DNA of 38,406 nt. Origin: Geobacteraceae bacterium GWC2_55_20. Lineage in GTDB: Bacteria > Desulfobacterota > Desulfuromonadia > Geobacterales > Pseudopelobacteraceae. Location: contig MGZK01000027.1 of NCBI GenBank assembly GCA_001802125.1, positions 1-38,406 of the forward strand, in the 5' to 3' direction. The notes under the pieces are model-generated. The model was given only the letters and a program-made list of their open reading frames with translations, had not been told where the DNA came from and searched no databases. A program made the translations under genes and the position numbers. Below, piece by piece: positions 13,194 to 28,201 of this stretch; positions within the stretch are counted from its first letter, which is position 1; every line of letters begins with the position of its first letter.

Positions 13194-13234
13194 GTTCCGG
13201 ACTTGCCGGAGATGATGGAAGCGAGGAGATCAAA

Positions 13235-13669: not shown

Positions 13670-13681
13670 GCTGTGAAATTC

Positions 13682-13701
13682 CTCCCCCTTGAATGGGGGA
13701 G
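13682..13701. repeat. REP-like hairpin CTCCCCC-TTGAAT-GGGGGAG
   Basis: Perfect 7-bp arms with a 6-nt loop in the gap between the Gly-rich protein gene and the UPF0182 gene. There is no T-run. It resembles the CCCCCTCCC hairpin at 27034-27056 and is probably of the same dispersed kind. Confidence 0.5.
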
Positions 13702-13749
13702 TTCATGAAGCGCAAATGATTATGGATGTGAACAACAGAGGGATACAGC

Positions 13750-16422
13750 ATGCTTAAGAACAAGTTCATTCTGATACTGATCATTGTTTCCGTGATTTTC
13801 CCGCTGCTTTCGTACCTGTTGAATTTTTACACCGATTGGCTGTTTTTCGTGGAGACCGGTTTCTCATCGGTGTTTACCACAACGGTTTATTCACAGACAA
13901 TCGCAGGGGTGTTCTTCGCCGTTCTGCTGTTCGGTTTTGCGCTGATCAACCTGCGGGTTGCCGGCAGAGCAGCGTTTCCCTACGCCGGAATGTTCATCGA
14001 AGCCGGCAGTATCAGGCTGCCTCGGGGCGAGGCCCAGCGCTTTGTCAGGCCGCTGGGTCTCCTGGCCTGTGTCGCCCTGGCCCTGTTTGCCGGCCAGTGG
14101 GGTGCGATGCGCTGGGAAGAACTGTTGCTTTTCACCAACAGGGTCACTGTAGGTACGGTTGATCCGGTTATCGGAAAGGATATTGGTTTCTACCTGTTCA
14201 GCCTGCCGTTCCTGGAAATGCTCAAGGCTTTCGCCAGCTTCCTGCTGCTGTCAACCACGGTCATGACCGCTGTCGTGTACTATGTCCGGGGTGGCATCGC
14301 CCTGACCGAACGCGGCGCCGCGGTTGATGAGAAAGTCCGCCGGCATCTGGCGATTCTGGCCGGGCTCTTCGCCTGCGCGATCGCAGCCGGCTTCTACCTG
14401 GACGGCTTCAGGCTGCTGTATTCCAACAACAACGCCTTTTATGGCGCGGGCTATGTTGATGTCAACTCGCGACTTTTGACCTACCGGGCGCTTACCTTCC
14501 TGACGCCTGTTGCCGGCGCGCTGCTGGCGATCGGAATCTGGAAAGGTTCCTGGCGGCTGGCGCTGTTGCCGCCGGTTATCGTGGTCGCTTCATACATGAT
14601 CGGTATCCGGGTCTATCCAGGGGTGCTGCAGAAATTCAAGGTTGCGCCCAACGAGTTGGCGCTGGAAATGCCCTATATTGAAAACAATCTCAAGTTTACC
14701 CGTTTCGGCTACGATCTGGACAAGATTGAAACGGTGCCTTTTGATGTGGACACCAGGCTATCTGCCGCCGATATAGCCAACAACGATGCCACCATCAAGA
14801 ACATCCGGCTCTGGGATCATGCGCCGCTGCTCAAAACCTACAGCCAGTTGCAGCAGATCCGGACCTATTACAAGTTTTTCGATGTGGATAATGACCGCTA
14901 CAAGGTCAACGGCCAGTATACCCAGGTGATGCTTTCGCCGCGCGAAATGTCCTACGCCGACCTTCCCAGCAAGAACTGGATCAACGAACGCCTGATCTTT
15001 ACCCACGGCAACGGCATCACCTTCGGGCCGGTCAGCAGGATCAGCAAGGAAGGGCTTCCGGAGTTTTTCGTCAAGGACATTCCGGCCGTCAGCCTGGCTG
15101 ACATCAAGGTCACCCGGCCCGAAATCTATTTCGGTGAACTCTCCAACGACTATGTGGTCGTCGGGACCAAGGTCCCGGAATTCAGCTATCCGACCGCTAC
15201 CGGCAATATCAATACCACCTATGCCGGAAAAGGCGGGGTGCCGATCGATTCCCTGTTTAAAAAGTCGCTCTTTGCCGCCAGATTCAAAACGGAAAAGATC
15301 CTGCTCTCTTCGGATATCACCAAAGAGAGTCGCATCATCTACAACCGCAATATCAGCGAGCGGGTCAAGGTGATCGCACCCTTTCTCCGTTTCGACGGCG
15401 ATCCCTACATGGTGGTGGACGAAAAGGGCCGGCTGAAATGGATCGTAGATGCCTACACATATTCGAACCGGTTACCCTACTCAAAGCCGCTCCTGGGCGG
15501 TATCAACTATATGCGCAATTCGGTCAAGGCGGTTGTGGATGCCTACGACGGTTCGGTCGACTTTTACATCAGTGACCCGAACGATGTGCTGGTGAAGGTC
15601 TATGCCCGCATGTTCCCGGACCTGTTCAAACCGCTGAGCGCCATGCCGGAAGATCTGCGCAGGCATGTCCGTTACCCGCACCAGTTCCTGCAGCTACAGG
15701 CTGCCATGTTTGCCGCCTACCACATGACCGATCCCAAGGTTTTCTACAACAAGGAGAACCTCTGGCAGGTTCCGGCCCTGGGCGAAAAGCCGATGGAACC
15801 CTACTACACGATCATGAAGCTGCCCGGTGAAAAGGTGGAGGAGTACATACTGCTGCTGCCGTTTACCCCTTCCAAACGGGATAACCTGGCGGCCTGGCTG
15901 ACGGCCCGCTGCGATGGAGAAAACTACGGTAAAATCCGGGCCTATACCTTCCCGCGTGACCGCTTGATCTACGGCCCCAAGCAGATCGACGCCCGCATCA
16001 ACCAGGATTCCTTCATCTCCCAGCAGCTGACACTCTGGAGCCAGCGCGGTTCCGAGGTCATCCGTGGCAGCCTGCTGGTAATTCCGATCGAAAAATCGCT
16101 GCTCTACGTCCAGCCGCTGTTTCTTGCCGCCGACAAGGCCGGCCTGCCGGAACTGAAACGGGTGATTGTCGCTTTCGGGGATCAGGTGGTGATGGAGGAA
16201 AACCTGGAACTGGCGCTGCAGCGACTCTTTGGTGGCAAAAAAACGGTTGCCGCCGCCACCGTGGCGGTGGCAACGGATTCGAAAACGCCGCCGGCGTCAC
16301 TGGCCAGGGAGGCGATGAGCATCTATGAAAAAGCCATGACCCTGCAGCGTCAGGGCAACTGGGCCGGATACGGCGAGGAGTTGCGCAAGCTGGAGCAGGT
16401 GCTGAAACAACTGTCACGCTAG
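13750..16422 (+). CDS. UPF0182 (COG1615) large membrane protein
   Basis: An 890-residue protein that matches UPF0182 by its N-terminus (segment LLNFYTDWLFFVETGFSSVF) and overall layout: about seven membrane segments in the first 310 residues, then a large soluble domain that is probably extracytoplasmic. Recognisable family features in the soluble part include YIENNLKFTRFGYDLDKI, the NIRLWDHAPLL stretch and ELSNDYVVVGTKVPEFSYP. The function of UPF0182 is unknown. The ATG at 13750 follows GAGGG. An Ala/Val-rich linker near residues 838-852 separates the core from a C-terminal helical tail (AREAMSIYEKAMTLQRQGNW) that is the usual end of the family. It sits amid ion-transport genes, all in the same direction. 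Confidence 0.93.
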   Translation: MLKNKFILILIIVSVIFPLLSYLLNFYTDWLFFVETGFSSVFTTTVYSQTIAGVFFAVLLFGFALINLRVAGRAAFPYAGMFIEAGSIRLPRGEAQRFVRPLGLLACVALALFAGQWGAMRWEELLLFTNRVTVGTVDPVIGKDIGFYLFSLPFLEMLKAFASFLLLSTTVMTAVVYYVRGGIALTERGAAVDEKVRRHLAILAGLFACAIAAGFYLDGFRLLYSNNNAFYGAGYVDVNSRLLTYRALTFLTPVAGALLAIGIWKGSWRLALLPPVIVVASYMIGIRVYPGVLQKFKVAPNELALEMPYIENNLKFTRFGYDLDKIETVPFDVDTRLSAADIANNDATIKNIRLWDHAPLLKTYSQLQQIRTYYKFFDVDNDRYKVNGQYTQVMLSPREMSYADLPSKNWINERLIFTHGNGITFGPVSRISKEGLPEFFVKDIPAVSLADIKVTRPEIYFGELSNDYVVVGTKVPEFSYPTATGNINTTYAGKGGVPIDSLFKKSLFAARFKTEKILLSSDITKESRIIYNRNISERVKVIAPFLRFDGDPYMVVDEKGRLKWIVDAYTYSNRLPYSKPLLGGINYMRNSVKAVVDAYDGSVDFYISDPNDVLVKVYARMFPDLFKPLSAMPEDLRRHVRYPHQFLQLQAAMFAAYHMTDPKVFYNKENLWQVPALGEKPMEPYYTIMKLPGEKVEEYILLLPFTPSKRDNLAAWLTARCDGENYGKIRAYTFPRDRLIYGPKQIDARINQDSFISQQLTLWSQRGSEVIRGSLLVIPIEKSLLYVQPLFLAADKAGLPELKRVIVAFGDQVVMEENLELALQRLFGGKKTVAAATVAVATDSKTPPASLAREAMSIYEKAMTLQRQGNWAGYGEELRKLEQVLKQLSR

Positions 16423-16472
16423 ATGTTATTTGTTCTGCTAATGTCGAAGATGGACTGAAAGGGGGAATCCTG

Positions 16473-16964
16473 ATGTGCTACCGAAACCTGTTCATGATGT
16501 CAATCCCGGTTGTGCTGCTCTCTCTGCTGTGTTTGACCCTTCCGGATAAATCCTGGGCGTCAGAGTCCGGAATCCGCCTGTCAAAGGGGCAGACCGTTTA
16601 CGTGCCGGCCTATTCCAACGTATTTACCGGGCCAAAGAAGCTCCCCTTCCAGCTGGCCACGACATTGAGCGTGCGCAGCACGGACCTGTCAGCCGTCATC
16701 AGGATCACGTCGATTGACTATTACGATACCAATGGCCGGATGATCCGGCGCTACCTGGACAAGCCGCTCAACCTGGGGCCTTTGGCCTCCACCTTCGTCC
16801 ATATCGAGGAAAAAGATGTCAGTGGCGGCTTCGGAGCCAACTTCATCGTCAGGTGGAACTCCGACAGGGTCGTCAATACCCCGATCATCGAGTGCGTGAT
16901 GATCGGCGCCACTTCAGGGCAGGGTATCTCCTTCGTCAGCCCCGGCCAGGAGATCAGGGAGTAG
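16473..16964 (+). CDS. DUF3124 exported protein
   Basis: A 163-residue protein with an N-terminal signal or lipoprotein-like sequence (hydrophobic to about residue 28, with SWAS before the mature part). The mature region follows DUF3124: GQTVYVPAYSNVFTG, then LSVRSTDLSAVIRITSIDYYDTNG and a later GGFGANFIVRWNS. The function is unknown; the fold is probably a beta-sandwich in the periplasm. It is preceded by GGGGGAAT before the ATG at 16473. The antiporter gene begins 4 bp after the stop, so the two are almost certainly cotranscribed, and this protein might be an accessory to transport, though nothing in the sequence proves it. Confidence 0.88.
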   Translation: MCYRNLFMMSIPVVLLSLLCLTLPDKSWASESGIRLSKGQTVYVPAYSNVFTGPKKLPFQLATTLSVRSTDLSAVIRITSIDYYDTNGRMIRRYLDKPLNLGPLASTFVHIEEKDVSGGFGANFIVRWNSDRVVNTPIIECVMIGATSGQGISFVSPGQEIRE

Positions 16965-16968
16965 CTTG

Positions 16969-18954
16969 ATGCCGTATGAAGCGCTCAAAGACATAGAGAT
17001 CCTCTTTGGCCTGGCGCTGGTGACGGTGGTACTGTTCCGACGTTTGAAATTTCCTTCCATCATCGGATTTCTGGTTACCGGCATCCTGGCCGGACCGCAT
17101 GCGCTGGCCTTCATCAAGAACACCCACCAGGTTGAGCAGATGGCGGAAATCGGGGTGGTGCTGCTGCTGTTCACGATCGGCATTGAACTGTCGCTGAAGG
17201 AGTTGATGCGGATCAAGCACCTGGTGCTGTGGGGGGGCGGACTGCAGGTCCTGGTTACGATCCTGGCGGTGGCCGCTGTCGGCGCGGTTTTCGGTTTTCC
17301 GCTCAACCAGGCGGTTTTTTTCGGTTTCCTGGTGGCGCTTTCCAGTACCGCGATCCTGATGAAGCTGCTGATCGATTCTGGCCAGGCCGACGCTCCCCAC
17401 GGCAAGATGGCGATGGGCATCCTGATCTTCCAGGATCTGTGCATCGTGCCGCTGATGCTGCTGACTCCGCTTCTGGCGGGGGGCGGCGATGGTATCCGTG
17501 GTGTCCTGGTCATCGGCGGCAAAGCGGCCGCAGTGGTCCTGGCGGCCCATTACGGCGCGCGCTTCCTGGTGCCGTGGATCTTCAAACAGGTGGTCAAGAC
17601 CAGGAGCAGGGAACTCTTCATCCTGACGATCATCTTCATCGGGCTGGGTACGGCCTGGCTGACCGCCATGGCCGGTCTGTCGCTGGCGCTGGGCGCATTC
17701 ATTGCCGGTCTGGCGATCTCCGAGTCCGAATACAGCCACCAGGCCTTGAGCGACATCATCCCCTTCCGGGAAGCTTTCATGAGCCTGTTCTTCATCTCGG
17801 TGGGAATGCTGCTGGACCCGGCCATACTGGTCAGGTATCCGCTACTGACAGCTTCGCTGGTGCTGACGATCGTGCTGATAAAGACGCTGATAACCACCGG
17901 CGCGGCCCTGACGCTGGGGGTGCCGATGCGGATCGCGATCATCGCGGCGCTCTCCCTGGCTCAGATTGGCGAGTTCTCTTTCGTTTTCTCCCAGGCCGGT
18001 GTCAAATTCGGACTGCTTACTCCGGAATATTACCAGATATTCCTGGCGGCTTCGATTGCGACGATGGGCTTGACTCCGGTCTGTCTCAAATTTGCCTCGC
18101 CACTGGCGGATCGGATCGTTGCCTGGCTGCCGCACAAACTGACCCGCGGCAGGGGGGTGTTGTCGCAACATGAGAAACCGGTGCTTTTGAACGACCATGT
18201 CATCATCGTGGGTTACGGTATTAACGGCAAGAACCTGGCCCGGGTGCTGAAAAACCTGAAAATCCAGCATATCGTGATTGAAACCAATCCCTTTACCGTG
18301 AAAAAAGAGGGCAAAAAGGGACAGCAGATCATGTTTGGAGACGCCTCCAAGCTGGAAGTGCTGGAACATGCACAGATTGCCAAAGCCCGCGGCATGGTGG
18401 TAGCGATTTCGGATGCAGCCGCCAGCAGGAGGGTGGCATCACTTGCCCGCCAGCTGAACCCTGCGCTGCACATCATTGTCAGAACCCGTTATCTGCTGGA
18501 GGTCGAGCCGCTTTACAAGCTGGGTGTCAACGAGGTCATACCGGAGGAGTTCGAAACTTCGATCGAGATTCTCTCGCGCGTGCTGCGGAATTACATGGTG
18601 CCCCATTCCGACATAGAGCGCTGCATCGCCGAGGTGCGCAGCGACGGCTACGACATGCTGCGCTCCATGAGCAGGCGCCACAGTCATGCTGTAGGCATCA
18701 GCGGGTATCTGTCGGGGGCCGAAATCGCCACCTACCGGGTTAAAGCGAAATCGCCGCTGGAGGGAGAGGGATTGCGGGAAGGCACCATCAGAAAGATGTC
18801 CGGCGCCACTGTGCTGGTCATCAAGCGGGGTGAAGAGGTGGTTCCGAATCCCGATCCGGTCTGGGAACTGCAGGTTGACGATATCCTGCTGCTGCTGGGG
18901 ACGCCCGAACAGCTGGCGGTGGCGGGCAGGCTGTTCGAACCGTCGGTTGCTTAG
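16969..18954 (+). CDS. CPA2-family K+(Na+)/H+ antiporter with RCK domains (KefB/YbaL-like)
   Basis: A monovalent cation:proton antiporter of 661 residues. Residues 1 to about 385 form roughly 12 membrane segments with CPA2 hallmarks: FPSIIGFLVTGILAGP, the core EIGVVLLLFTIGIELS, the FQDLCIVPLMLL segment and LAQIGEFSFVF. At about 407 an RCK_N (TrkA-N) nucleotide-binding domain starts, with HVIIVGYGINGKNLARVL carrying the GxGxxG pattern and VIETNP after the second strand. An RCK_C (TrkA-C) domain at about 575-655 ends LLLLGTPEQL. Such proteins are gated by NAD(H) or glutathione adducts. The ATG at 16969 is taken rather than the adjoining TTG at 16966; GGGAG lies upstream. No KefG-type ancillary gene is next to it. 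Confidence 0.93.
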   Translation: MPYEALKDIEILFGLALVTVVLFRRLKFPSIIGFLVTGILAGPHALAFIKNTHQVEQMAEIGVVLLLFTIGIELSLKELMRIKHLVLWGGGLQVLVTILAVAAVGAVFGFPLNQAVFFGFLVALSSTAILMKLLIDSGQADAPHGKMAMGILIFQDLCIVPLMLLTPLLAGGGDGIRGVLVIGGKAAAVVLAAHYGARFLVPWIFKQVVKTRSRELFILTIIFIGLGTAWLTAMAGLSLALGAFIAGLAISESEYSHQALSDIIPFREAFMSLFFISVGMLLDPAILVRYPLLTASLVLTIVLIKTLITTGAALTLGVPMRIAIIAALSLAQIGEFSFVFSQAGVKFGLLTPEYYQIFLAASIATMGLTPVCLKFASPLADRIVAWLPHKLTRGRGVLSQHEKPVLLNDHVIIVGYGINGKNLARVLKNLKIQHIVIETNPFTVKKEGKKGQQIMFGDASKLEVLEHAQIAKARGMVVAISDAAASRRVASLARQLNPALHIIVRTRYLLEVEPLYKLGVNEVIPEEFETSIEILSRVLRNYMVPHSDIERCIAEVRSDGYDMLRSMSRRHSHAVGISGYLSGAEIATYRVKAKSPLEGEGLREGTIRKMSGATVLVIKRGEEVVPNPDPVWELQVDDILLLLGTPEQLAVAGRLFEPSVA

Positions 18955-19009
18955 GGCAGTTTCAGGATGCGCTTATGGAAAGAAGTCTGCTTTTGCGAGG
19001 GGATCTGAC

Positions 19010-19252
19010 GTGCATCATATTGTTCTCAAGACGATCGGGCAGGCAAAGCGCCTGATAGTAATAGTGGTGGGTTTCACGGTCCTGGCCGCCGGGGTGGCGA
19101 TGATCGCGCTTCCGGGACCGGCGGTTGTGGTTATCCCGGTTGGCCTGGCGATCCTGGCCACCGAATTCATCTGGGCCAGGAAACTGCTGGGCAAGGTAAA
19201 AGAGCGCATCGAGAGTATCAGGAAAGGAAACGGATGTCAGAACAATCAATGA
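19010..19252 (+). CDS. PGPGW-family small membrane protein
   Basis: An 80-residue protein with two hydrophobic segments (about 14-32 and 36-52) around the loop ALPGPAVVVIP, the signature for which PGPGW proteins are named, and a basic C-terminus (KLLGKVKERIESIRKG). The function is unknown. The start is set at GTG 19010, seven bases after GAGGGG; a longer reading frame to 18830 would run into the antiporter gene. The last 19 bases overlap the downstream TerC gene in another frame, a sign of translational coupling. Confidence 0.82.
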   Translation: MHHIVLKTIGQAKRLIVIVVGFTVLAAGVAMIALPGPAVVVIPVGLAILATEFIWARKLLGKVKERIESIRKGNGCQNNQ

Positions 19253-20178
19253 TGTGGGGCGCCTTCGGGGTGTTGATGATCATCATGCTGGCCATCGATT
19301 TGGGCATGAACCGCAAAGCCCACGAGGTCTCATTCCGCCAGGCGCTGACCTGGAGCGTAATCTGGGTCTCGCTGGCGCTGGCCTTCAATGCAGGCATCTA
19401 TGTCTTTCTGGGGCAAACCAAGGCGCTGGAGTTTTTTACCGGCTATATCATCGAAAAATCACTGTCGGTGGACAACCTGTTTGTGTTCATCATGATCTTC
19501 GGCTATTTCAAGATCCGTGGGGAGCATCAGGCCCGCGTGCTGAAATGGGGCATCATCGGCGCGTTGGTGCTGCGGGCGCTGTTCATCTTCACCGGTATCG
19601 AGCTGCTGAAGAACTTTCACTGGTTGTTCTACCTGTTCGGAACACTGCTGCTGTTTACCGCCTGGAAAATGGCCTTTGGCGAAGAGGGTGAGGTACATCC
19701 GGACAACAACCTGCTGGTCAGGCTGGCCCGACGTCTGTTCCCGTTAACGAAACGGGTTCGGGGAGACTGGTTCTTTACCCGCCGCAAGGGGCTGTTGGTT
19801 GCCAGCCCGCTGTTTCTGACGCTGGTGATGGTGGAGAGCAGCGACGTACTGTTTGCAATCGATTCGATTCCTGCCATCTTTGCTGTAACCCTGGATCCGT
19901 TCATCGTCTTTACCTCCAATATCTTCGCCATCATGGGGCTGAGGGCGCTCTACTTCCTGCTGGCCAGCGTGATGGGGATGTTCGTCTACCTGAAACTGGG
20001 AATTTCCTTCATCCTGGCCTTCGTGGGGGGCAAGATGATCGCAGGCGCCATAGGATTCCAGATCCCGATTCACATCTCGCTGGCGGTCATATTTGCCAGC
20101 CTGACCCTGGCGGTAGTCGCCTCGCTGACCATCGGAAAGAAACACCCGCAACATGCCGTTCCGGTTGAACATAATTAA
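19234..20178 (+). CDS. TerC/Alx-family membrane protein, putative Mn2+ exporter
   Basis: A 314-residue membrane protein with about nine hydrophobic segments. Family motifs are present in both halves: FFTGYIIEKSLSVDNLFVF in the first, with the acidic E and D, and LTLVMVESSDVLFAIDSIPA in the second. This long form matches E. coli Alx, which exports Mn2+ and is itself controlled by a yybP-ykoY riboswitch in E. coli. No riboswitch precedes this copy; control may come by readthrough from the riboswitch at 11062, about 8 kb upstream, or from a closer promoter not recognised. It starts inside the PGPGW gene (19-bp overlap). It is the second TerC-family paralogue in the window, distinct from the short YgdQ-like one. 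Confidence 0.93.
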   Translation: MSEQSMMWGAFGVLMIIMLAIDLGMNRKAHEVSFRQALTWSVIWVSLALAFNAGIYVFLGQTKALEFFTGYIIEKSLSVDNLFVFIMIFGYFKIRGEHQARVLKWGIIGALVLRALFIFTGIELLKNFHWLFYLFGTLLLFTAWKMAFGEEGEVHPDNNLLVRLARRLFPLTKRVRGDWFFTRRKGLLVASPLFLTLVMVESSDVLFAIDSIPAIFAVTLDPFIVFTSNIFAIMGLRALYFLLASVMGMFVYLKLGISFILAFVGGKMIAGAIGFQIPIHISLAVIFASLTLAVVASLTIGKKHPQHAVPVEHN

Positions 20179-20221
20179 TTTTAAACACCACACCACTAAA
20201 CACCATACCAGGAGGAATTTC

Positions 20222-20509
20222 ATGAAATGTCCCGTATGCCCAACCGTAAACCTTGTCATGTCGGAACGTCAGGGAGTAGAGATAGACTACTGTCCGGAAT
20301 GCCGTGGTGTCTGGCTTGATCGGGGAGAGCTGGACAAAATCATCGAGCGCTCCGCTTCGCAGGAGTTGACGCCTCCTCCCCAGCCCCAATACGCCCCCCA
20401 GCAGCCGCAATACGCGCCACACCAGAGCAGCCATGCTCCAGGCCACGGTCATGGTCATGGTCAGAAACCGTACAGGAAGAAATCATTCCTGGAAGAGCTG
20501 TTTGACTGA
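20222..20509 (+). CDS. TFIIB-type zinc-ribbon protein
   Basis: A 95-residue protein. Residues 1-42 form a zf-TFIIB ribbon: MKCPVC at the start, then YCPECRGVWLDRGELDKI, giving two CxxC knuckles. The rest is low-complexity: Pro/Gln-rich repeats (PQPQYAPQQPQYAP), then a histidine/glycine run (HAPGHGHGHGQ) that could bind metal, and a short basic-to-acidic tail ending LEELFD. Small proteins of this type are widespread; a role is not established. The ATG at 20222 follows AGGAGGAA. It lies 43 bp after the Alx-like gene and 66 bp before the MreB-like gene. The His-rich tail is notable given the metal-transport context. Confidence 0.85.
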   Translation: MKCPVCPTVNLVMSERQGVEIDYCPECRGVWLDRGELDKIIERSASQELTPPPQPQYAPQQPQYAPHQSSHAPGHGHGHGQKPYRKKSFLEELFD

Positions 20510-20575
20510 TTTAACCGGTTTACAAATGGTCAAGAGGTGATACTCGTGACTGGCTGGACAGTATAAGGAACTGCT

Positions 20576-21421
20576 ATGTCGTTAATATCGCAGCACGCAT
20601 TCTGGAGGCAGAACCTGGCTCTGGATGTCGGCACGGCAACCATACGGATGGGTACGGGAATGCACCGCATGATTGAGCAGCCTGCGGCCATCGCTACTAA
20701 ACGGGCGCTGTGCGGAGGTGTCGTGGTAGACGGCGAAGCGCTGGTTGCGATCCTGAAACCATTGCTGGCACAGGGGCGGGTGTTCGGTATAGTCAAGCCG
20801 CGTGTACTGGCCTGCGCACCCAGCGATGTGAATCTTTCGGAACGGGAACTGCTGGTGGATTCGATAATATGTTCCGGGGCTTCATCGGTGGTTGTCATTC
20901 CGGAACCTCTTGCCGCTGCAATCGGTTCCGGAATCGACGTTTCGTCCCCCTATGCCCAGATGGTAATCGATATCGGAGAAGGCGTTACCGATTGCGCGGT
21001 GATTCAATCCAGTAAAATCCGCACAACCTGTGCCGTCAGGATCGGCTGCGCAATGCTGCGCCGGGATCTGGTAAAAGCCGCGGAGCGTGACAGAAACAGC
21101 ACCATTTCTGATGAGGATGCCGAGAGAATTCTGCGGACGGATGGCGTTGCCCATTTAGCGGCCAGCTGTAAACTTCCTGCAGTTGAAAAGCTGATAGACA
21201 CCGTAAATACCTTCTTGCTGGATCTGCCGCACAGCCTTGGGTGCGAACTCATCGAAAGCGGAATCTGGTTGACCGGCGGAGGGGCCTTGATTCCGGGAAT
21301 GCGTGAAAGGCTGGAGGAACAGACCGGCATCAGCGTTAGCGTTGCGGAAAACCCCCGGTCCGCGGTAGTGGAGGGTGCGCGTGTTATTCTTCCGGTTGTC
21401 ACCGCCCTTAACCAATGGTGA
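20576..21421 (+). CDS. Short MreB/Mbl-like actin-fold protein
   Basis: A 281-residue actin/Hsp70-fold protein that resembles MreB but is about 60 residues shorter. Nucleotide-site motifs are visible: phosphate-1 LALDVGTATIRM (about 13-24), the connect region PEPLAAAIGSG, phosphate-2 MVIDIGEGVTDCAVI, and the adenosine motif GIWLTGGGALIPGM. The segments that carry MreB protofilament contacts and the amphipathic membrane helix are shortened or changed, and IGERTAE is replaced by ISDEDAERIL. It is therefore unlikely to be the main cell-shape protein; no mreC/mreD or rod genes follow. It sits between a zinc-ribbon gene and a Mn exporter gene. Its role is unknown. The ATG at 20576 has only a weak ribosome site nearby. 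Confidence 0.82.
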   Translation: MSLISQHAFWRQNLALDVGTATIRMGTGMHRMIEQPAAIATKRALCGGVVVDGEALVAILKPLLAQGRVFGIVKPRVLACAPSDVNLSERELLVDSIICSGASSVVVIPEPLAAAIGSGIDVSSPYAQMVIDIGEGVTDCAVIQSSKIRTTCAVRIGCAMLRRDLVKAAERDRNSTISDEDAERILRTDGVAHLAASCKLPAVEKLIDTVNTFLLDLPHSLGCELIESGIWLTGGGALIPGMRERLEEQTGISVSVAENPRSAVVEGARVILPVVTALNQW

Positions 21422-21437
21422 CGGAAATACCGTCAAG

Positions 21438-21459
21438 CTTTGAACGCATCGTTCAAGCG
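21438..21459. repeat. Hairpin upstream of the GDT1-type gene
   Basis: TGAACG-CAT-CGTTCA (21441-21455) has perfect 6-bp arms, extendable with a bulged T to GCTT...AAGC. It lies 29 bp before the start of the UPF0016 gene, in a 62-bp gap. No aptamer-like sequence was seen. It may be an operator or a weak attenuator. Confidence 0.35.
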
Positions 21460-21483
21460 TAAAATAAAGTCATAGGAAACTAA

Positions 21484-22074
21484 ATGGAACAAGCCATATT
21501 TTTCAGCACCTTCGGATTGATCTTTCTGGCGGAACTGGGCGACAAGACCCAGCTGACCGCGATGGCCCTGGCGCTGCGCTATCCCTGGCAGCGGATCTTT
21601 GTGGGCATTGCGGCCGCCTTTGTCGTGCTGAATCTGGCCGCAGTAGCGGTGGGCAAAGTTTTGTTCCTGCTGCTGCCGATCTTCTGGGTGACGCTGGTCT
21701 CGGCGCTGCTATTTCTGTATTTCGGCTACAGCACGCTGCGGCACGCCTGCGACAGCGGCGATGATGAAGATGGCCCCCCACCCACGGCGGCCACGGCGGC
21801 CCGTACCGCCTTCATCATGATCTTCATGGCGGAACTGGGCGACAAGACCCAGCTGGTAACCGCCAGCCAGGCGGCCCGCCATTCGAACAGCGTCATGGGG
21901 ATGGTCATGGTCTTCTGCTCTTCCACGCTGGCTCTGTGGTGTGTCTCGCTTCTGGGGATTTTTGCCGGCAAACAGCTGGTGCGCTTTATTCCGATCTGTT
22001 GGATTCATCGCACGGCAGGATTCATGTTCCTGGTTTTCGGGGTCGCGGCGTTGTGGAAGCTTAAGGGGATGTGA
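21484..22074 (+). CDS. GDT1/TMEM165 (UPF0016) family Mn2+ exporter
   Basis: A 196-residue membrane protein with two homologous halves, each bearing the family signature: AELGDKTQLTAMALA near residues 16-30 and AELGDKTQLVTASQAA near 116-131 (consensus E-x-G-D-K-T/S). The acidic residues line the cation path. Bacterial members export manganese; eukaryotic relatives transport Ca2+/Mn2+ in the Golgi. A short acidic linker (DSGDDEDGPPP) joins the halves on the presumed cytoplasmic side. Together with the two TerC-family genes this makes three putative Mn2+ efflux proteins in 10 kb. The ATG at 21484 follows AGGAAA. A terminator lies 47 bp downstream. Confidence 0.93.
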   Translation: MEQAIFFSTFGLIFLAELGDKTQLTAMALALRYPWQRIFVGIAAAFVVLNLAAVAVGKVLFLLLPIFWVTLVSALLFLYFGYSTLRHACDSGDDEDGPPPTAATAARTAFIMIFMAELGDKTQLVTASQAARHSNSVMGMVMVFCSSTLALWCVSLLGIFAGKQLVRFIPICWIHRTAGFMFLVFGVAALWKLKGM

Positions 22075-22121
22075 TCGGTCGCTTCAGACGGAAAACGCTT
22101 GATGTGTGATTTCCACACTGA

Positions 22122-22148
22122 AGCTCCAGAGCATACTCGGGGCTTTTT
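22122..22148 (+). terminator. Intrinsic terminator after the GDT1-type gene
   Basis: AGCTCCAGAG pairs with CTCGGGGCT around a CATA loop (nine pairs, one bulged A, one wobble), followed by five T. It sits 47 bp after the GDT1-type stop and closes the long plus-strand gene run that begins at the riboswitch. Confidence 0.75.
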
Positions 22149-22235
22149 GTGTTTCTGGTATGCAAAAATCTGAATGGATTGGAAGTTTCAGCAGAATGTC
22201 GTGCAGCACTAAGAAAAGCTGACGGAGGATGACTC

Positions 22236-23555
22236 GTGGAATCCATAGCAGTTGAGCTCATGGTAGTTTTTCTGTTGATCCTGGCGAATGGTTTTTTTTC
22301 AGGATCCGAACTCGCTATAATTTCGGCCCGTAAAAGCACTATTGCCCGTCTGATTGCTGAGGGAAACACCCAGGCAATGATGGTGGAAAAACTCCAGAAA
22401 GACCCACACCGCTTCCTGGCAACGGTGCAGATCGGGGTTACCGTAGTTGGATCGTTGGCCTCGGCAGTAGGTGGCGCGACGGCGGTGGAATATCTCAAGC
22501 CGCAGCTTGATTCAGCACCTTATGCATGGATGCGTGAAGCCGGTGAGCCGATCTCGATCGGTATCGTAGTTGCCCTGGTTTCCTATTTTTCACTTATTCT
22601 CGGGGAACTTGCACCAAAAACCATCGGACTTCAGTTCGCGGACCGGATGTCCCTGATTGTTGCCAAACCGATTAACGCATTGGCCACGATCGGCGGGGTG
22701 GCGGTGACATTTTTAACTCTTTCGAATCGGGCGGTGCTGGCTATGTTTGGCGTCAAGCCAACCAGCGCTCAGGAGTTTGTCACAAGGGAAGAAGTTCTCC
22801 ATACCGTTACCGAAGGTGTCGGAGCCGGAGCATTGAGCGAGCACGAACAAAAGGTGATCGAAAATATGCTGGATTTCAGCCGTACCCAAGTCAGCGAAGT
22901 CATGGTTACGCGACTCAGGATGATCCTCCTGGATATTGATTCGCCAAAGGATGTATTCATGCAGGTTGTACGTGATAATATGTACACCCGCTATCCGGTC
23001 TACCAAAACGATCGTGACAATATCGTTGGATTTATCCACAGCAAGGACCTGTTTCTGCACCCATTTATCGATAAGCCTGAATTCAAACTGTGCCAGATTA
23101 TGCGCACACCGATGTTCGTTCCGGAGAACAAGCGGGCCAGTGATTTGCTTCGTGAGATGCAGCATAAGAGGATGCAAATGGCGTTTGTCGTGGATGAGTA
23201 TGGCAGCATCAGCGGCTTGGTGACCACTGAAGACCTGTTGGAGGAGCTGGTCGGAGAAATCGAGGATGAGCATGATATCGGTGATCTGCGCCGGGCGGAA
23301 CGTCTCCCGGATGGAAGTATGCTGGTCGATGGGCTCATTTCGTTGAATGATCTGGAAGAACTGCTCGATATGAAGTTTGAAGAAGATTTACCCTATGATA
23401 CTCTGGCTGGCCTGATACTGAATGAAGTTGGAAGATTCCCTAGGAAAGGGGAAAAAATCGAGTGGAACAATCTGAAATTTATCTGTGAAGAGATCACGCC
23501 GACGTCCATCGTCAAAGTCAGGATTTTCAGGGAAGAGTTCTCTCTGGAAAAGTAG
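22236..23555 (+). CDS. CNNM/CorC (HlyC) family protein: DUF21-CBS-CBS-CorC_HlyC
   Basis: A 439-residue protein. The N-terminal DUF21 membrane domain (about 1-190) has the family pattern LANGFFSGSELAIISARKS, LATVQIGVTVVGSLASAVGG and LILGELAPKTIGLQ. A tandem CBS pair follows (about 210-335; VSEVMVTRLRMILLD and FVVDEYGSISGLVT), then a small CorC_HlyC domain (about 350-435; DGLISLNDLEELL). Such proteins take part in Mg2+ (and perhaps Co2+) efflux or transport, with the CBS pair binding ATP-Mg2+. The old name hemolysin is misleading. The start is GTG at 22236, preceded by GGAGG. It begins a separate unit after the terminator at 22122-22148. Confidence 0.94.
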   Translation: MESIAVELMVVFLLILANGFFSGSELAIISARKSTIARLIAEGNTQAMMVEKLQKDPHRFLATVQIGVTVVGSLASAVGGATAVEYLKPQLDSAPYAWMREAGEPISIGIVVALVSYFSLILGELAPKTIGLQFADRMSLIVAKPINALATIGGVAVTFLTLSNRAVLAMFGVKPTSAQEFVTREEVLHTVTEGVGAGALSEHEQKVIENMLDFSRTQVSEVMVTRLRMILLDIDSPKDVFMQVVRDNMYTRYPVYQNDRDNIVGFIHSKDLFLHPFIDKPEFKLCQIMRTPMFVPENKRASDLLREMQHKRMQMAFVVDEYGSISGLVTTEDLLEELVGEIEDEHDIGDLRRAERLPDGSMLVDGLISLNDLEELLDMKFEEDLPYDTLAGLILNEVGRFPRKGEKIEWNNLKFICEEITPTSIVKVRIFREEFSLEK

Positions 23556-23730
23556 AAATTCCGTAATTGATGCCCCGGTCTTCCGTTTACGGTGCGGCAA
23601 TCCCTAAAACTGATCTGTTTTGCAGTTATGTTATATTTATCTAAAAAAATTTGTGCTATTGACCTCAGTAAATGCATCAAACCGACAGGACCAGACAGTT
23701 TTCAACTTACCAATGAAAGCGATACAACCC

Positions 23731-25377
23731 ATGAACAAAACCACCTACGTAATCGGCCACCGAAATCCCGACACCGATTCGATCGCATCGGCGATCGGCT
23801 ATGCCGCTCTGAAACAGAAGCTAGGCGATCCGGACGTGATTGCAGCTATGGCCGGCGCACCCAATCCTCAGACCCTCTATATCCTAGATCGCCTCGGAAT
23901 ACCGGAGCCACTGTTTCTGGCCGATGTCCATCCCAAGGTTCGCGACATAATCAATGCGCGAGCCATCACGATCGGCCAGCGGGCCTCGGCCTACGAAGCG
24001 CTGGAGTTGTTCAACAAGAGCGGCGTGCGGGTTCTGCCGGTGATATGTGATGATCAGAAACCGTGCGGCGCGCTTTCACTGCGGCGGCTATCCGAAAGCT
24101 ACATGCTTCCCTGCCAGGAAAAACTGCGGCAGGTGATGACCAGTCTGCCGAGCCTGGCCAGGACCCTGTCGGGCCGGTTCGAGACCGGTGGGGACGGCAA
24201 TGATCCGGTTACGCTGAAACTCTTTATCGGCGCCATGCTGGAGGAGTCCTTTACCAGCCGGATCGAGGGGCACGACCCGCGCGAACTGTTGATCATGACC
24301 GGTAACCGCCGTACCATCCAGCAGGCGGCAATCGAGCGGGGTGTGCGGGTGCTGGTGGTGACCGGCGGGCACCCCCTGGAAGCGGGACTGAATGAACTGG
24401 CGCTAGAGAAAGGTGTCAACGTGCTGTTGACACCGCATGACACCGCCACCGCCGCCTGGCTGGCGCGACTTTCCACGCCGGTTTCGTTTCTGGCGGAGTG
24501 TACGTTTTCAACGATCGGGGTCGGCGAGTCACTGGCCGCCCTGCGCCAGAAGCTGATGGCATCCAGTGAACCGGCGATACTGGCTCTGGAGGAGGATGGC
24601 ACACTGGCCGGTGTCGCAACCAAATCCTCGTTGCTTTCGCCGATTCCCTACAGCCTGATACTGGTGGACCACAACGAACTGGGGCAGGCTGTTCCGGGTG
24701 CGGAACAGGTCGAAATCAGCGAGGTCATCGACCACCACAAGCTTGGCAACAGCCACTCAAATCTGCCGATCGCATTCACCACCTCGCCGGTCGGCAGCAC
24801 CTGTACCCTGGTGACGTGGCGCTACCGTGATTGCAGCGTCGAGCCGGACCCGACAATTGCGGCGCTGCTTCTGGCTGGGATCCTGTCCGATACGGTCATC
24901 CTGAAGTCGCCCACCACCACCGAAAGTGACCGCCGGGCGGTTGCCTGGCTGGAACAACTGGCAGGAGTCATCGCAACCGATTTCGGACGCGATATTTTTG
25001 CCGCCTGCAGTTCTCTGAAAAACTACGGCACGGTTGAGCGGGTCGTGGCGGCAGATTTCAAACTTTTCAAGCAGGAATCACATACAATCGGCGTTGGACA
25101 GGTGGAGGTGGTCGGCTTCGACGAATTTTACGGCATGAAAGACGATCTGCTATCGGCCCTGGCGGAGGTAAAACGGCGCGACAATCTCTTCATCGCCGGC
25201 CTGATGGTAACGGATATCACGACCGAAACCACGCTGTTCCTGGTGGAGGGGCATACCCGCATCGCTCATGTGATGGAATATCCGCAGCTTGAGCCGCACC
25301 TGTATGAACTTAAGAACGTGATGTCGCGCAAGAAGCAGATGGTGCCACACCTGTTGAAAGTCCTGGCCAGGGTCTGA
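23731..25377 (+). CDS. ppaC: Mn-dependent inorganic pyrophosphatase, family II, CBS-DRTGG type
   Basis: Hydrolyses PPi to phosphate. Family II enzymes use Mn2+ or Co2+ and belong to the DHH superfamily. The 548 residues show: the N-terminal DHH part with GHRNPDTDS (H10, D14, D16); a CBS domain around INARAITIGQRASAYEALEL; a DRTGG domain (MTGNRRTIQQAAIERGVR to LLTPHDTATAAW); a second CBS (FSTIGVGESLAAL); then VDHNELGQ and VIDHHKLGN (the DHH motif), and a DHHA2 C-terminal domain ending with the substrate-binding RKKQMVPHL. The regulatory insert confers control by adenine nucleotides, with AMP/ADP inhibition in studied relatives. The ATG at 23731 is chosen because the family begins just before IGHRNPD; no strong ribosome site exists there, and an in-frame ATG at 23713 is the alternative. 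Confidence 0.94.
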   Translation: MNKTTYVIGHRNPDTDSIASAIGYAALKQKLGDPDVIAAMAGAPNPQTLYILDRLGIPEPLFLADVHPKVRDIINARAITIGQRASAYEALELFNKSGVRVLPVICDDQKPCGALSLRRLSESYMLPCQEKLRQVMTSLPSLARTLSGRFETGGDGNDPVTLKLFIGAMLEESFTSRIEGHDPRELLIMTGNRRTIQQAAIERGVRVLVVTGGHPLEAGLNELALEKGVNVLLTPHDTATAAWLARLSTPVSFLAECTFSTIGVGESLAALRQKLMASSEPAILALEEDGTLAGVATKSSLLSPIPYSLILVDHNELGQAVPGAEQVEISEVIDHHKLGNSHSNLPIAFTTSPVGSTCTLVTWRYRDCSVEPDPTIAALLLAGILSDTVILKSPTTTESDRRAVAWLEQLAGVIATDFGRDIFAACSSLKNYGTVERVVAADFKLFKQESHTIGVGQVEVVGFDEFYGMKDDLLSALAEVKRRDNLFIAGLMVTDITTETTLFLVEGHTRIAHVMEYPQLEPHLYELKNVMSRKKQMVPHLLKVLARV

Positions 25378-25492: not shown

Positions 25493-26788
25493 ATGCCGCT
25501 TAAAACAGTTCAAAATATGCTTTCCAGATACAGGCTTGGGGACGAGACCGGCCACAGGCAGGATACGCCGCGTCATGAGCAGGCGGAATCTGTTGCGCAG
25601 AAACAGTGCCTGGCGGAACTGCATCTCTATTTGAACCGGCTTGATCCCGCCGAAATTGCATCGATTCTGGACGAGTTGCCCCCCGAGGATCTGTTTTTGG
25701 CGTGGGGACAGATCGACGACAGCCACGCCGACGACATTCTGGACGAAGTCAGCGATGCCACTCGCGACACGCTGGCTACCCGCAGCAGCTACCTGGGCGC
25801 CGCATGCGTCGTGAACGCCTTTGAGCTGTCGAATGGCCGCTTGAGCCAGACCACGATCGAATCGGTCGAGGACCTGGAAGGAATCAAGCCGATCTGGGTC
25901 GATCTGGTGGGTACGACAAAAGCCGACCGACGTAAGATCGGTCAATTTTTTGGACTGGAATTGCCCGATCCGGAGGATCTGACCGACATCGAAACCAGCG
26001 CCCGTTTCTATGTGGAGGAAAACGGCGAGATTCACCTGCACTCCGACTTCCTGCTCGATCGCGAGGGGAGTTCCCGCAACGTGGCGGTGGCCTTCATCCT
26101 CTACCGTGACATCCTCTTTTCTGTACGCGAAGAAGAACTGCCGGTTTTCCGTCTGCAGCGTCTGCGCGCCAGGATACAGGCCGGTTCCGTCTCCGACGGC
26201 ATGGACATGCTGCTGGACCTCTATGCCGCCGATGCCGAGTATTCGGCCGACTCTCTGGAGGAAATCTACACCGCGCTGGGCGAAGTCGGCAAGAAGGTGC
26301 TCAGTGAAAAAATGACCGACGAAGAGGCGGCCCAGACCCTGGCCGACATTGCCGAGGAGGAGGACCTGAACGGCCGCGTTCGTCGCAATGTACTGGATAC
26401 CCGTCGCGCCCTGACCTTCCTGATCCGCAGAAAACTGCTCTCAGTGCCGCAGCTGGAAGATTCGCAGCAGATTCTGCGCGACATCGAATCTCTGGACGGC
26501 CACACCTCTTTCCTGTTCGACAAGATCAACTTCCTGATGGATGCCACGGTCGGTTTCATCAACATCAACCAGAACCGTGTCATCTACCGTCTGACCATTC
26601 TCAGCGTGATCTTCATGCCTCTCAACGTGATTGCCGGCATCGGCGGCATGTCCGAGTTTTCGATGATGACCAGGAATATCCCCTGGCCTCTTTCGTACGC
26701 CATATTTACGGTCGGAATGTTCATCGTCGCCTGGATCACCTATGTGATTCTCAAGTTCTACGAGAACCGCCATAAACCGCGAAAATGA
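25493..26788 (+). CDS. CorA-family divalent-cation transporter with MgtE_N-like N-terminal extension and GMS signature
   Basis: A 431-residue CorA-like protein. Residues about 43-95 (LHLYLNRLDPAEIASILDEL and onward to SDATRDTLATR) resemble the helical MgtE_N domain of another Mg2+ channel family, an unusual head for a CorA. The CorA cytoplasmic domain follows (about 130-360, with SDFLLDREGSSRNVAV and a long helix ending NFLMDATVGFININQNRV). Two C-terminal membrane segments are separated by the loop IAGIGGMSEFSMM. The strictly conserved GMN selectivity signature is GMS (385-387), and the following MPEL is also changed. Cation specificity is therefore uncertain; Mg2+, Co2+, Zn2+ or Mn2+ are possible. 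The C-terminus ends KFYENRHKPRK, as in the family. No strong ribosome site is present; GCAGG lies just before ATG at 25493. Confidence 0.88.
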   Translation: MPLKTVQNMLSRYRLGDETGHRQDTPRHEQAESVAQKQCLAELHLYLNRLDPAEIASILDELPPEDLFLAWGQIDDSHADDILDEVSDATRDTLATRSSYLGAACVVNAFELSNGRLSQTTIESVEDLEGIKPIWVDLVGTTKADRRKIGQFFGLELPDPEDLTDIETSARFYVEENGEIHLHSDFLLDREGSSRNVAVAFILYRDILFSVREEELPVFRLQRLRARIQAGSVSDGMDMLLDLYAADAEYSADSLEEIYTALGEVGKKVLSEKMTDEEAAQTLADIAEEEDLNGRVRRNVLDTRRALTFLIRRKLLSVPQLEDSQQILRDIESLDGHTSFLFDKINFLMDATVGFININQNRVIYRLTILSVIFMPLNVIAGIGGMSEFSMMTRNIPWPLSYAIFTVGMFIVAWITYVILKFYENRHKPRK

Positions 26789-27002: not shown

Positions 27003-27167
27003 ATGACATCAGCAATCAAAGACAACCGCTCAACCCCCTCCCGTCAAGGGAGGGGGAGCGAAACCCAAACCGACATTCCAGCCCTGGAAGCCGAAATCGA
27101 TCGCCTCGTCTACGCCCTTTGCGCCCTGACGGATGAGGGAATTTCTGTGGTGGAGGATAAGAAATGA
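27003..27167 (+). pseudogene. Remnant: C-terminus of a restriction/methylase-type protein
   Basis: A 54-residue reading frame. Residues about 25-54 (IPALEAEIDRLVYALCALTD and GISVVEDKK) match the conserved end of large Type IIG/Eco57I- or BREX-like DNA methyltransferases, which often finish with EIDRLVYALYGLT-EEI-VVE. The catalytic parts are missing. The first part encodes a REP-like hairpin (CCCCCTCCC/GGGAGGGGG) in frame, so this may be a fossil fused to a repeat. It may also be a translated leader: its stop overlaps the start of the DUF1016 gene (ATGA), so reading it could couple translation to that gene. An ATG at 27003 lies after AAGGGAG. Confidence 0.6.
27034..27056. repeat. REP-like hairpin CCCCCTCCC-GTCAA-GGGAGGGGG
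   Basis: Perfect 9-bp arms with a 5-nt loop, located inside the reading frame of the methylase-tail remnant. It resembles the hairpin at 13682-13701. Confidence 0.6.
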
Positions 27168-28201
27168 AAAGTATCCTGCCTGCGGAATACTCAACCTTTC
27201 TTCTGGAACTAAAGGAACGGATTCACAAGGCACAGTACGCCGCTCTGAAGGCGGTCAACAAGGAGCTGATTGCCCTATACTGGGACATCGGCAAATCCAT
27301 TGTCAGCAGACAGGATCAGCTTGGCTGGGGAAAAGCCGTTGTAGAAACGGTTGCCAGGGATTTACAGAACGAATTTCCGGGAATGCAGGGTTTTTCCGCC
27401 CGAAACCTCTGGAATATGCGGAACCTTTATCTGGCATACAGGGACAATCAAAAACTGCAACCATTGGCTGCAGAAATCAGCTGGACGAAAAATGTCATCA
27501 TAATGGAACGCTGTAAGGACGAACTGCAACGAGAATTCTATATCAAGGTGACAAAGAAATTCGGCTGGACCAAAGATGTTCTCATCAACCAGATTGAGGC
27601 CGGAGCCTTTGAACGGTTTATGGCGAATCAAACCAACTTTGACAAAGCAGTGCCGGGAAAATATCGCCATCAGGCAAAACTGGCGGTTAAAGATGAATAC
27701 ACCTTCGACTTTCTGGAGATGGCCGAAGAACACTCGGAAAAGGAGCTTGAACGAGCACTGGTGGATAATGTCCGAAAATTCCTGGTCGAGATGGGCGGCT
27801 ACTTTACCTTTGTCGGCAATCAGTATCGGCTGGAAATTGACGGATCAGAGTTTTTCATAGACCTGTTGCTGTATCACAGGCAGTTACGCTGCCTTGTGGC
27901 GATCGAACTGAAAATCGGAGCGTTCAAGCCGGAATATGCAGGCAAGATGCAGTTTTATCTTTCAGCACTCAACGACACAGTTCGTTTGCCTGATGAAGAA
28001 CCTTCTATCGGCATAATACTTTGTAAGGAGAAAAGCAGGACATTTGTCGAATACGCCTTGCGGGACAGCAAAAAACCGATCGGCGTTTCGACGTATAAGC
28101 TGTCAAACAAGTTACCGAGAGAGTTGAAAAAATATTTTCCGTCCACGGAAGAGATGAGCAAACGGCTGGAGGGGCTTTCTGGTAACCAGGAAGATACCTG
28201 A
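27164..28201 (+). CDS. DUF1016/YhcG family PDDEXK nuclease protein
   Basis: A 345-residue YhcG-type protein. The N-terminal DUF1016_N domain (about 1-150) contains NKELIALYWDIGKSIVSRQ, the GFSARNLWNMRNLY segment and ISWTKNVIIMERCKD. The C-terminal domain (about 170-330) is a PD-(D/E)XK nuclease with FVGNQYRLEIDGSEFFIDLL, then LRCLVAIELKIGAFKPEYAG, so D-(E)xK residues are present (E..D..ELK). YhcG-type proteins are often encoded with restriction-modification systems and are candidate defense nucleases; a Holliday-junction-like role has been suggested. Here the upstream neighbour is only the tail of a methylase-like protein, overlapping by four bases. The flanking REP-like hairpins and the absence of a complete partner suggest a remnant of a larger island. 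The reading frame itself is intact. Confidence 0.9.
   Translation: MKSILPAEYSTFLLELKERIHKAQYAALKAVNKELIALYWDIGKSIVSRQDQLGWGKAVVETVARDLQNEFPGMQGFSARNLWNMRNLYLAYRDNQKLQPLAAEISWTKNVIIMERCKDELQREFYIKVTKKFGWTKDVLINQIEAGAFERFMANQTNFDKAVPGKYRHQAKLAVKDEYTFDFLEMAEEHSEKELERALVDNVRKFLVEMGGYFTFVGNQYRLEIDGSEFFIDLLLYHRQLRCLVAIELKIGAFKPEYAGKMQFYLSALNDTVRLPDEEPSIGIILCKEKSRTFVEYALRDSKKPIGVSTYKLSNKLPRELKKYFPSTEEMSKRLEGLSGNQEDT

What the first reader, a model, noticed from the sequence alone, without database searches (positions are those of the whole stretch)
25493..26788. CorA-like protein with an MgtE_N-like head and GMS in place of GMN
Seen: residues 43-95 look like the MgtE N-domain, and the selectivity signature at 385-387 is GMS with the following MPEL also altered. 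Known: GMN is nearly invariant in CorA and needed for Mg2+ transport. Inference: the fusion may sense intracellular cations by a different route, and the channel may have changed selectivity or be a regulator.
Basis: partly seen in the sequence, partly recalled or inferred. Interest (0 to 1): 0.62.

Follow-up and report, generated by a model that had tools for sequence, protein, structure and literature searches.

The report
CorA magnesium channel with rebuilt filter
This gene makes a bacterial metal-ion channel of the CorA type that carries a piece of an unrelated magnesium channel as its front end and has a different, strictly conserved selectivity filter (GMS-E instead of GMN), and gene-control clues suggest that it still imports magnesium.

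Summary
The ORF at 25493-26788 (431 aa) is a CorA protein with an MgtE-derived head (residues 1-98) and GMS at 385-387. It is not an error or decay: of 91 headed relatives whose filter could be read, 86 have GMS (in all 86 as GGMSE) and 5 have GMN; all 23 full-length hits of a plain protein search in 98 related genomes have GMS. Co-changes are concerted (TmCorA Thr305->Asn, Tyr before GMN->Gly, Asn314->Ser, +Glu, MPEL lost), and the pore is the most constrained part (dN/dS 0.02-0.09). The cytosolic domain is E. coli-CorA-like. Trees of cytosolic and pore segments conflict (AU p 0.0002 and 0.018): the same body occurs with GMS-E or GMN pores, so pores were exchanged at least twice. In three Geobacterales genomes the only M-box Mg2+ riboswitch lies upstream of this gene; 12 of 14 other M-box loci read have an Nramp-related Mg2+ transporter instead. 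In Chromatium okenii it was the only Mg2+ importer found. Best reading: an Mg2+-importing CorA with an alternative filter and an MgtE-type sensor. The head fusion was in print (Knoop 2005, via a review); I found no mention of the GMS filter, but key papers are not held. Transport is untested.

The parts
25493..26788 (+). CorA-GMS gene, 431 aa plus stop
   Evidence: Pfam CorA 128.3 bits
25493..25786 (+). MgtE-derived head, residues 1-98 (N-terminal extension plus first half of the MgtE_N domain)
   Evidence: hhalign 99.5 probability to MgtE; Pfam MgtE_N 50-99; fold alignment to 8gpv Z 10.8, in agreement but not decisive
25811..26557 (+). E. coli-type CorA cytosolic domain and stalk helix, about residues 107-355
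   Evidence: 5n77 E 1.3e-53, Z 30.2, rmsd 1.8 over 256 residues
26573..26575 (+). Asn361, counterpart of TmCorA Asn288, kept
   Evidence: N in 86 of 86 GMS members, 5 of 5 headed GMN, 45 of 45 bare GMN
26624..26626 (+). Asn378, counterpart of TmCorA Thr305 (inner polar ring)
   Evidence: N in 86 of 86 GMS; T in 5 of 5 headed GMN and 14 of 14 E. coli-type; T20, S9, A2 in 31 Tm-type
26642..26656 (+). Filter GGMSE, residues 384-388 (YGMN-F in ordinary CorA)
   Evidence: each residue 86 of 86
26657..26671 (+). Loop FSMMT (residues 389-393) in place of the FxxMP start of FxxMPEL

Best explanation
A CorA-superfamily channel, presumably pentameric, that lets Mg2+ (and probably other divalent ions, as other CorA do) into the cell. 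The filter is rebuilt: a Ser387 ring with an adjacent Glu388 ring at the mouth and an Asn378 ring one step inside, instead of an Asn ring at the mouth and a Thr ring inside. The E. coli-type cytosolic domain gates it as in other CorA, and a half MgtE_N domain fused in front adds a second cytoplasmic sensing or gating element. Shown by computation: architecture, invariant filter, purifying selection, repeated exchange of pore segments, an M-box upstream in three relatives. Inferred: that it conducts, that Mg2+ is the main substrate, that the M-box acts on this gene, that the head senses Mg2+, the pentamer, and the role of each ring.
For: CorA fold over 103-426 and Pfam CorA in 86 of 86 members. 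Kept Asn361, Pro376 and Gly382, and invariant GGMSE. dN/dS against four close relatives: pore 0.02-0.09, head 0.14-0.25 in three of four (the fourth not computable). The pore segment of GMS proteins is one starred clade (100/100) while the cytosolic tree needs 4 changes of that label; forcing all GMN proteins together on the cytosolic segment is rejected (p-AU 0.000175), and forcing all headed proteins together on the pore segment is rejected (p-AU 0.0176). Identity switches partner near residue 350. An M-box lies upstream on the same strand in G015, G068 and G073, each genome's only M-box match; these three lack the NrmT orthologue. mgtE lies divergent beside the gene in L014 and L042 and one gene away in L035. 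In G110 (Chromatium okenii) and the MAGs G105, G108 and G116: no other CorA, no MgtE, no ATPase over the MgtA model's cut-off and no NrmT-query match at E<=1e-10.
Against: No transport data. The M-box precedes the gene in only 3 of 23 Geobacterales carriers; in 11 it lies elsewhere and 9 (the window's genome included) have none at the filters used, and it lies 406-470 nt before the start. The terminator-like stem after it in G073 is no more than shuffles give (1 found, mean 1.0). A second CorA coexists in 22 of 23 carriers, so it is usually an additional system. Absence of other importers rests on model searches in genomes of unknown completeness; G105 has P-type ATPase matches below the cut-off (376 bits against 610.75). 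The window's own neighbourhood suggests other metals such as Mn2+. Literature holds GMN important: a GMN-to-AAA change reduced growth of yeast relying on Mrs2 (passages).
Confidence: 0.6

Rival explanations
1. A CorA channel whose rebuilt filter has changed selectivity towards a transition metal (Mn2+, Co2+, Ni2+ or Fe2+), working beside an ordinary Mg2+ CorA.
For: Both polar rings differ at positions that matter for selectivity (Thr305 and Asn314 of TmCorA; T305S abolished Co2+ transport, passages). A second CorA coexists in 22 of 23 Geobacterales carriers. The window neighbours are metal-linked: two TerC, GDT1, CNNM/CorC, a CBS-DRTGG-DHH-DHHA2 protein (family-II pyrophosphatase by recall), FeoB.
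Against: That block recurs, in part, only in the two nearest relatives (L113, L114); the pyrophosphatase alone is adjacent in L121 and about 8 kb away in L131. An M-box lies upstream in three genomes. It was the only Mg2+ importer found in four genomes.
Confidence: 0.25
2. A non-conducting or weakly conducting regulator, for example a subunit that mixes with ordinary CorA.
For: Loss of the Asn thought essential; a mixed CorA123 complex is mentioned for Cupriavidus metallidurans (passage).
Against: The pore is the most constrained part. The other CorA of the five carriers read is TmCorA-like in pore and cytosolic part. Exchange of whole pores on the same body. Genomes where it is the only CorA hit: 9 of 45 and 1 of 23.
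Confidence: 0.08
3. An Mg2+ release valve or exporter rather than an importer.
For: A review passage mentions CorA-linked efflux.
Against: M-box leaders mostly work by forming a terminator when Mg2+ is high (passages), so expression would rise when Mg2+ is scarce.
Confidence: 0.05
4. Sequencing error or decaying gene.
For: None found.
Against: GMS in 86 of 91 headed relatives with a readable filter, in 23 of 23 full-length hits of an unbaited search, and dN/dS 0.05-0.12 over the whole gene.
Confidence: 0.01

Closest known systems
E. coli CorA (cytosolic domain 5n77)
   Same: Cytosolic domain: 40% identity, Z 30.2
   Different: The 14 bare E. coli-type relatives here (picked by their PPT phrase) all have YGMNF, mostly followed by MPEL, and no MgtE head
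TmCorA (Thermotoga maritima)
   Same: Whole CorA fold, Z 20-22; TM1 phrase FMPLxxIAGIxGM
   Different: Thr305, Tyr, Asn314 and MPEL replaced; head added
Long CorA homologues of Dechloromonas and Magnetospirillum with an MgtE-like N-terminus (Knoop 2005, cited in PMC9276622; passages read; the 2005 paper is not held)
   Same: Probably this very family: our loci L030, L037 and L046, titled Magnetospirillum or Paramagnetospirillum, carry head plus GMS
   Different: Whether the GMS filter was noted there could not be checked
MgtE (PF01769 with MgtE_N and CBS)
   Same: Its first ~100 residues are homologous to the head
   Different: No MgtE membrane domain, no CBS, only half of MgtE_N
ZntB and other GxN variants (GVN, GIN recalled; for Met/Val/Ile at x)
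   Same: Variation in the filter triad
   Different: They keep the Asn; here the Asn itself is lost

Membership tests
CorA / 2-TM-GxN superfamily | CorA domain homology | tested here: met
   Pfam CorA 128.3 bits, 86 of 86 members
CorA / 2-TM-GxN superfamily | CorA fold with stalk helix and two C-terminal membrane helices | tested here: met
   Predicted monomer aligns over 103-426 to MjCorA and TmCorA, Z 20-23
CorA / 2-TM-GxN superfamily | GxN signature | tested here: not met
   GMS, invariant in 86 members; related by homology and fold, not by the motif
CorA / 2-TM-GxN superfamily | MPEL after the motif (core CorA only) | tested here: not met
   MMTR in the window; T at the Pro position in 85 of 86
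CorA / 2-TM-GxN superfamily | homopentamer, Mg2+ transport | not testable with these tools
   monomer model only; no assay
NCBIfam TIGR00383 corA equivalog | score over 200.75 bits | tested here: not met
   143.5 bits
MgtE | MgtE membrane domain PF01769 | tested here: not met
   absent from Pfam results at E<=10
MgtE_N domain | Pfam MgtE_N over cut-off | tested here: met
   28.9 against 25.9 bits, half-length; 60 of 86 members at E<=1e-3

The most novel reading that the evidence does not exclude
A second natural solution to Mg2+ selection in CorA: a Ser ring with an adjoining Glu ring and an inner Asn ring replace the 'essential' Asn of GMN, perhaps by holding a more dehydrated ion with carboxylates. 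Evolution has swapped this pore against the GMN pore on the same sensor body, so the pore is a plug-in unit. The MgtE_N module would then serve as an Mg2+ sensor shared by unrelated Mg2+ transporters (MgtE, CorA, and, as a separate protein, NrmT operons).
Probability: 0.4. Interest if true: 0.8.

Novelty: new variant of a known kind. Interest (0 to 1): 0.62.

Why it matters
GMN is taught as the near-invariant Mg2+ filter of CorA/Mrs2/Alr1. A family found in alpha-, beta- and gammaproteobacteria and in Geobacterales and Desulfobacteraceae (record titles) that lost the Asn yet keeps the pore under strong selection, in three genomes with an Mg2+ riboswitch upstream, gives a natural experiment on what the filter needs. 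Natural chimeras (same head and body, GMS-E or GMN pore) give matched pairs that isolate the filter's effect.

Tried and rejected
Conserved gene neighbourhood: the window's metal-linked block (TerC, GDT1, CNNM, pyrophosphatase) recurs in part beside the gene only in the two nearest relatives; the pyrophosphatase alone in L121 (adjacent) and L131 (about 8 kb off). Pfam of 109 flanking ORFs showed no common partner (at most 4 of 109 for one family, CBS; 2 of 109 for MgtE). Those ORFs came from a crude longest-ORF caller, one per side; 109 of its 167 were sent: all of the L113-L132 set and some others were left out to stay under the size limit.

Mn riboswitch: no Rfam match in the window. A c-di-GMP-I match about 900 nt upstream in L089 was judged not linked.

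Foldseek with the head alone gave no E<=0.001; an MgtE domain was first by rank only. Head homology rests.

GMS without head: a pore-only query matched 2 of 274 class genomes, the centre genome itself (G104) and G379, both with ORFs over 450 aa. I saw no headless GMS protein, but sampling is thin. Of the 46 genomes with a match, 23 are full-length GMS and 1 a fragment; of the other 22 weaker hits (25-38% identity) I read six loci (L107-L112), all GMN.

G003 at first looked like a genome with this as its only importer, but it has NrmT, so it is not used as evidence. G137 was dropped likewise (32% Nramp match).

Papers: no hit for GMS with CorA and GMN motif, MgtE_N/CorA/fusion or an M-box tandem in Geobacter; led only to the review that cites Knoop; others (one plant paper; two papers, listing seen only; one, listing seen only) gave nothing on the point in the listings. 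Papers were read as passages only; Palombo 2013 and Knoop 2005 are not held.

Full report
WHAT IS THERE. The ORF 25493-26788 encodes 431 residues. Pfam gives CorA at 134-420 and, over its cut-off, MgtE_N at 50-99 covering only the first half of that profile. NCBIfam's corA equivalog model scores 143.5, below its cut-off of 200.75. The closest solved structure is the cytosolic domain of E. coli CorA (5n77, E 1.3e-53, residues 107-364). An AlphaFold monomer model (mean pLDDT 81.4, pTM 0.62) aligns to 5n77 with Z 30.2, to MjCorA and TmCorA with Z 20-23, and at residues 1-102 to an MgtE cytoplasmic domain with Z 10.8, rmsd 1.6 over 77 residues. The last value alone is not decisive: the tool warns that helical bundles reach such Z by chance, and unrelated helical chains stand beside it. 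The head folded alone gave no significant Foldseek E-value, though MgtE and flagellar FliG-type chains were among the top rows.

THE HEAD. A profile of 80 heads against 7 MgtE proteins from the carriers' genomes gave probability 99.5 and E 2.4e-23, window residues 1-98 to MgtE 11-109. The match includes the N-terminal extension before the Pfam domain and stops halfway through MgtE_N. In L014 and L042 an mgtE gene sits divergent beside the CorA gene, and in L035 one gene away. The head thus descends from, or shares ancestry with, the start of a proteobacterial MgtE.

THE FILTER. I aligned 137 distinct CorA proteins: 86 have head and GMS, 5 have head and GMN, 45 have GMN without head, and 1 headed protein (L072) is cut off before the filter. 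Among the 86, residues 384-388 are GGMSE without exception, position 378 (TmCorA Thr305) is always Asn, Asn361 (TmCorA Asn288) is always kept, and MPEL is replaced. Bias: 65 of the 86 come from a search in which GMSEFSMM was one of six bait peptides (best 80 of 587 kept). The search of 98 related genomes used the whole protein and gave 23 full-length hits (58-100% identity), all GMS. Nei-Gojobori dN/dS against four close relatives is 0.05-0.12 for the whole gene, 0.02-0.09 for the pore and 0.14-0.25 for the head (one head value not computable). Asn at the Thr305 position is not unique to the family: another CorA in the L012 genome (L194) reads PLN...FGMN.

WHY THOSE POSITIONS MATTER. [quoted passage not shown] In CtMrs2 the GMN Asn and loop Glu residues bind Mg2+, and a GMN triple-Ala change reduced growth of yeast (PMC11919701, passages). 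The present family changes both rings and puts an acidic residue next to the filter. How this acts is inference.

PORE EXCHANGE. Five headed proteins carry an ordinary E. coli-type pore: L057, L059 and L060 (Methylococcaceae, two titled as Methylomonas strains) and L068 and L070 (Accumulibacter MAGs). Sliding identity switches near residue 350: L070 is 50-100% identical to the GMS protein L012 in 20-residue windows from residue 50 to 350, then 60, 42, 15 and 14%; against the ordinary CorA L077 those last four windows are 100, 95, 60 and 50%. With 25 of 86 GMS (hand-picked for spread), 5 headed GMN and 14 of 45 bare GMN proteins (the 31 TmCorA-type left out), the cytosolic tree needs 4 changes of the GMS label while the pore tree needs 1 (support 100/100). 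Holding all GMN proteins together on the cytosolic segment is rejected (p-AU 0.000175), and holding all headed proteins together on the pore segment is rejected (p-AU 0.0176). Nine bare beta/gamma CorA (Pandoraea, Duganella and others) also fall inside the GMS set on the cytosolic tree. The groups were named after a first tree, so the p-values are somewhat favourable, and the pore tree has only 68 columns. At least two exchanges are needed; the direction is not settled.

GENOME CONTEXT. In 98 genomes around and including the window's, 23 have the full gene (one more fragment in G086). Of these 22 have a second CorA and none has MgtE. Among 45 further carriers (45 of the 65 GMS loci were sent), 9 have it as the only CorA hit, and 5 of those lack MgtE. 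Of these five, G105, G108, G110 (Chromatium okenii) and G116 have no match to NrmT and G137 has a 32% one. None of 12 genomes tested has an ATPase over the MgtA model's cut-off (2 of 14 control genomes do); G110 has no match at all, G105 has matches below the cut-off. Completeness of these genomes is not given.

RIBOSWITCH. An M-box Mg2+ riboswitch (135-141 bits, cut-off 44) lies on the same strand upstream of the gene in G073, G015 and G068 (3 of 20 loci scanned), 406-470 nt before the start, and is each genome's only M-box match. A terminator-like stem follows it in G073, but the scan finds as many in shuffles. M-boxes occur in 69 of 98 genomes. In 12 of 14 other M-box loci that I fetched the downstream genes include a 431-470 aa ORF with the NrmT start; the other two lead an Nramp-like and, by eye, a P-type ATPase gene. 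One NrmT pair was scanned: PRC + MgtE_N + CBS, then Nramp. NrmT is a demonstrated Mg2+ importer in Clostridium and M-boxes almost always precede Mg2+ transport genes (PMC4072509, passages). Twelve of 23 carriers have the NrmT orthologue (82% identity or more; two of them partial); the three with the M-box before CorA-GMS do not. So CorA-GMS stands where NrmT stands elsewhere. No M-box was found in the 50 genomes of the other set, and 9 of 23 carriers, the window's genome among them, have none (strict filters).

CONCLUSION. By homology and fold it is a CorA; by the motif that names the 2-TM-GxN group it is not. It most likely works as a divalent-cation importer with Mg2+ as main substrate. The regulator reading is weak. 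Changed selectivity remains open and is the main rival, helped by the window's own metal-linked neighbours, which however do not travel with the gene. The fusion was noted in 2005 (via PMC9276622). The invariant GMS-E filter, the pore exchange and the M-box link I did not find in the searches named (listings, not full texts), within an open-access library that lacks the two key papers.

Noticed in passing
L220:1244-1404 (+), also L221, L222, L217, L214, L204, L205 and 20 more genomes: A conserved ~150-nt element (GGTGGTGGTT..TTGGACAGTCATAGTAGCG..CCCATCCCGTTC..CAAAGC..GCTTTG) in 27 of 98 genomes; 28 of 30 matches lie 56-70 nt after an M-box on the same strand. No Rfam family at gathering and none sensible at E<=5. 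Indels are not in threes, so it is probably RNA, not coding; covariation is weak (2 of 20 pairs with a double change). It precedes CorA-GMS (3 genomes), Nramp-like (G026, G071, G078) and, by eye, P-type ATPase (G094) genes; no match in the window and 24 other loci tested. Candidate new leader RNA in tandem with the Mg2+ riboswitch.
   Followed up: partly
L206-L219: In most of the Geobacterales M-box loci read, the leader precedes an Nramp-related transporter, in several with a gene for a PRC + MgtE_N + CBS soluble protein between: MgtE_N as a separate partner of another Mg2+ importer.
   Followed up: partly
window 12432-25377: Two TerC, a Na/H-exchanger-TrkA protein, an MreB-like, GDT1, CNNM/CorC and a CBS/DRTGG/DHH/DHHA2 protein precede the gene: a metal-linked block shared in part with the two nearest relatives only.
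   Followed up: partly
L189, L190, L191 (genome G111): Three CorA-GMS paralogues in one Rhodocyclales genome, one (L189) with a differing head start.
   Followed up: no
L089:3693-3766 (-): c-di-GMP-I riboswitch about 900 nt upstream of CorA-GMS in G041.
   Followed up: no
L194: A CorA with PLN..IFGMN: Asn at the Thr305 position together with normal GMN.
   Followed up: no
window 27164-28198: YhcG/DUF1016 nuclease-like gene directly after CorA-GMS; no match to it in the relatives' stretches compared.
   Followed up: no
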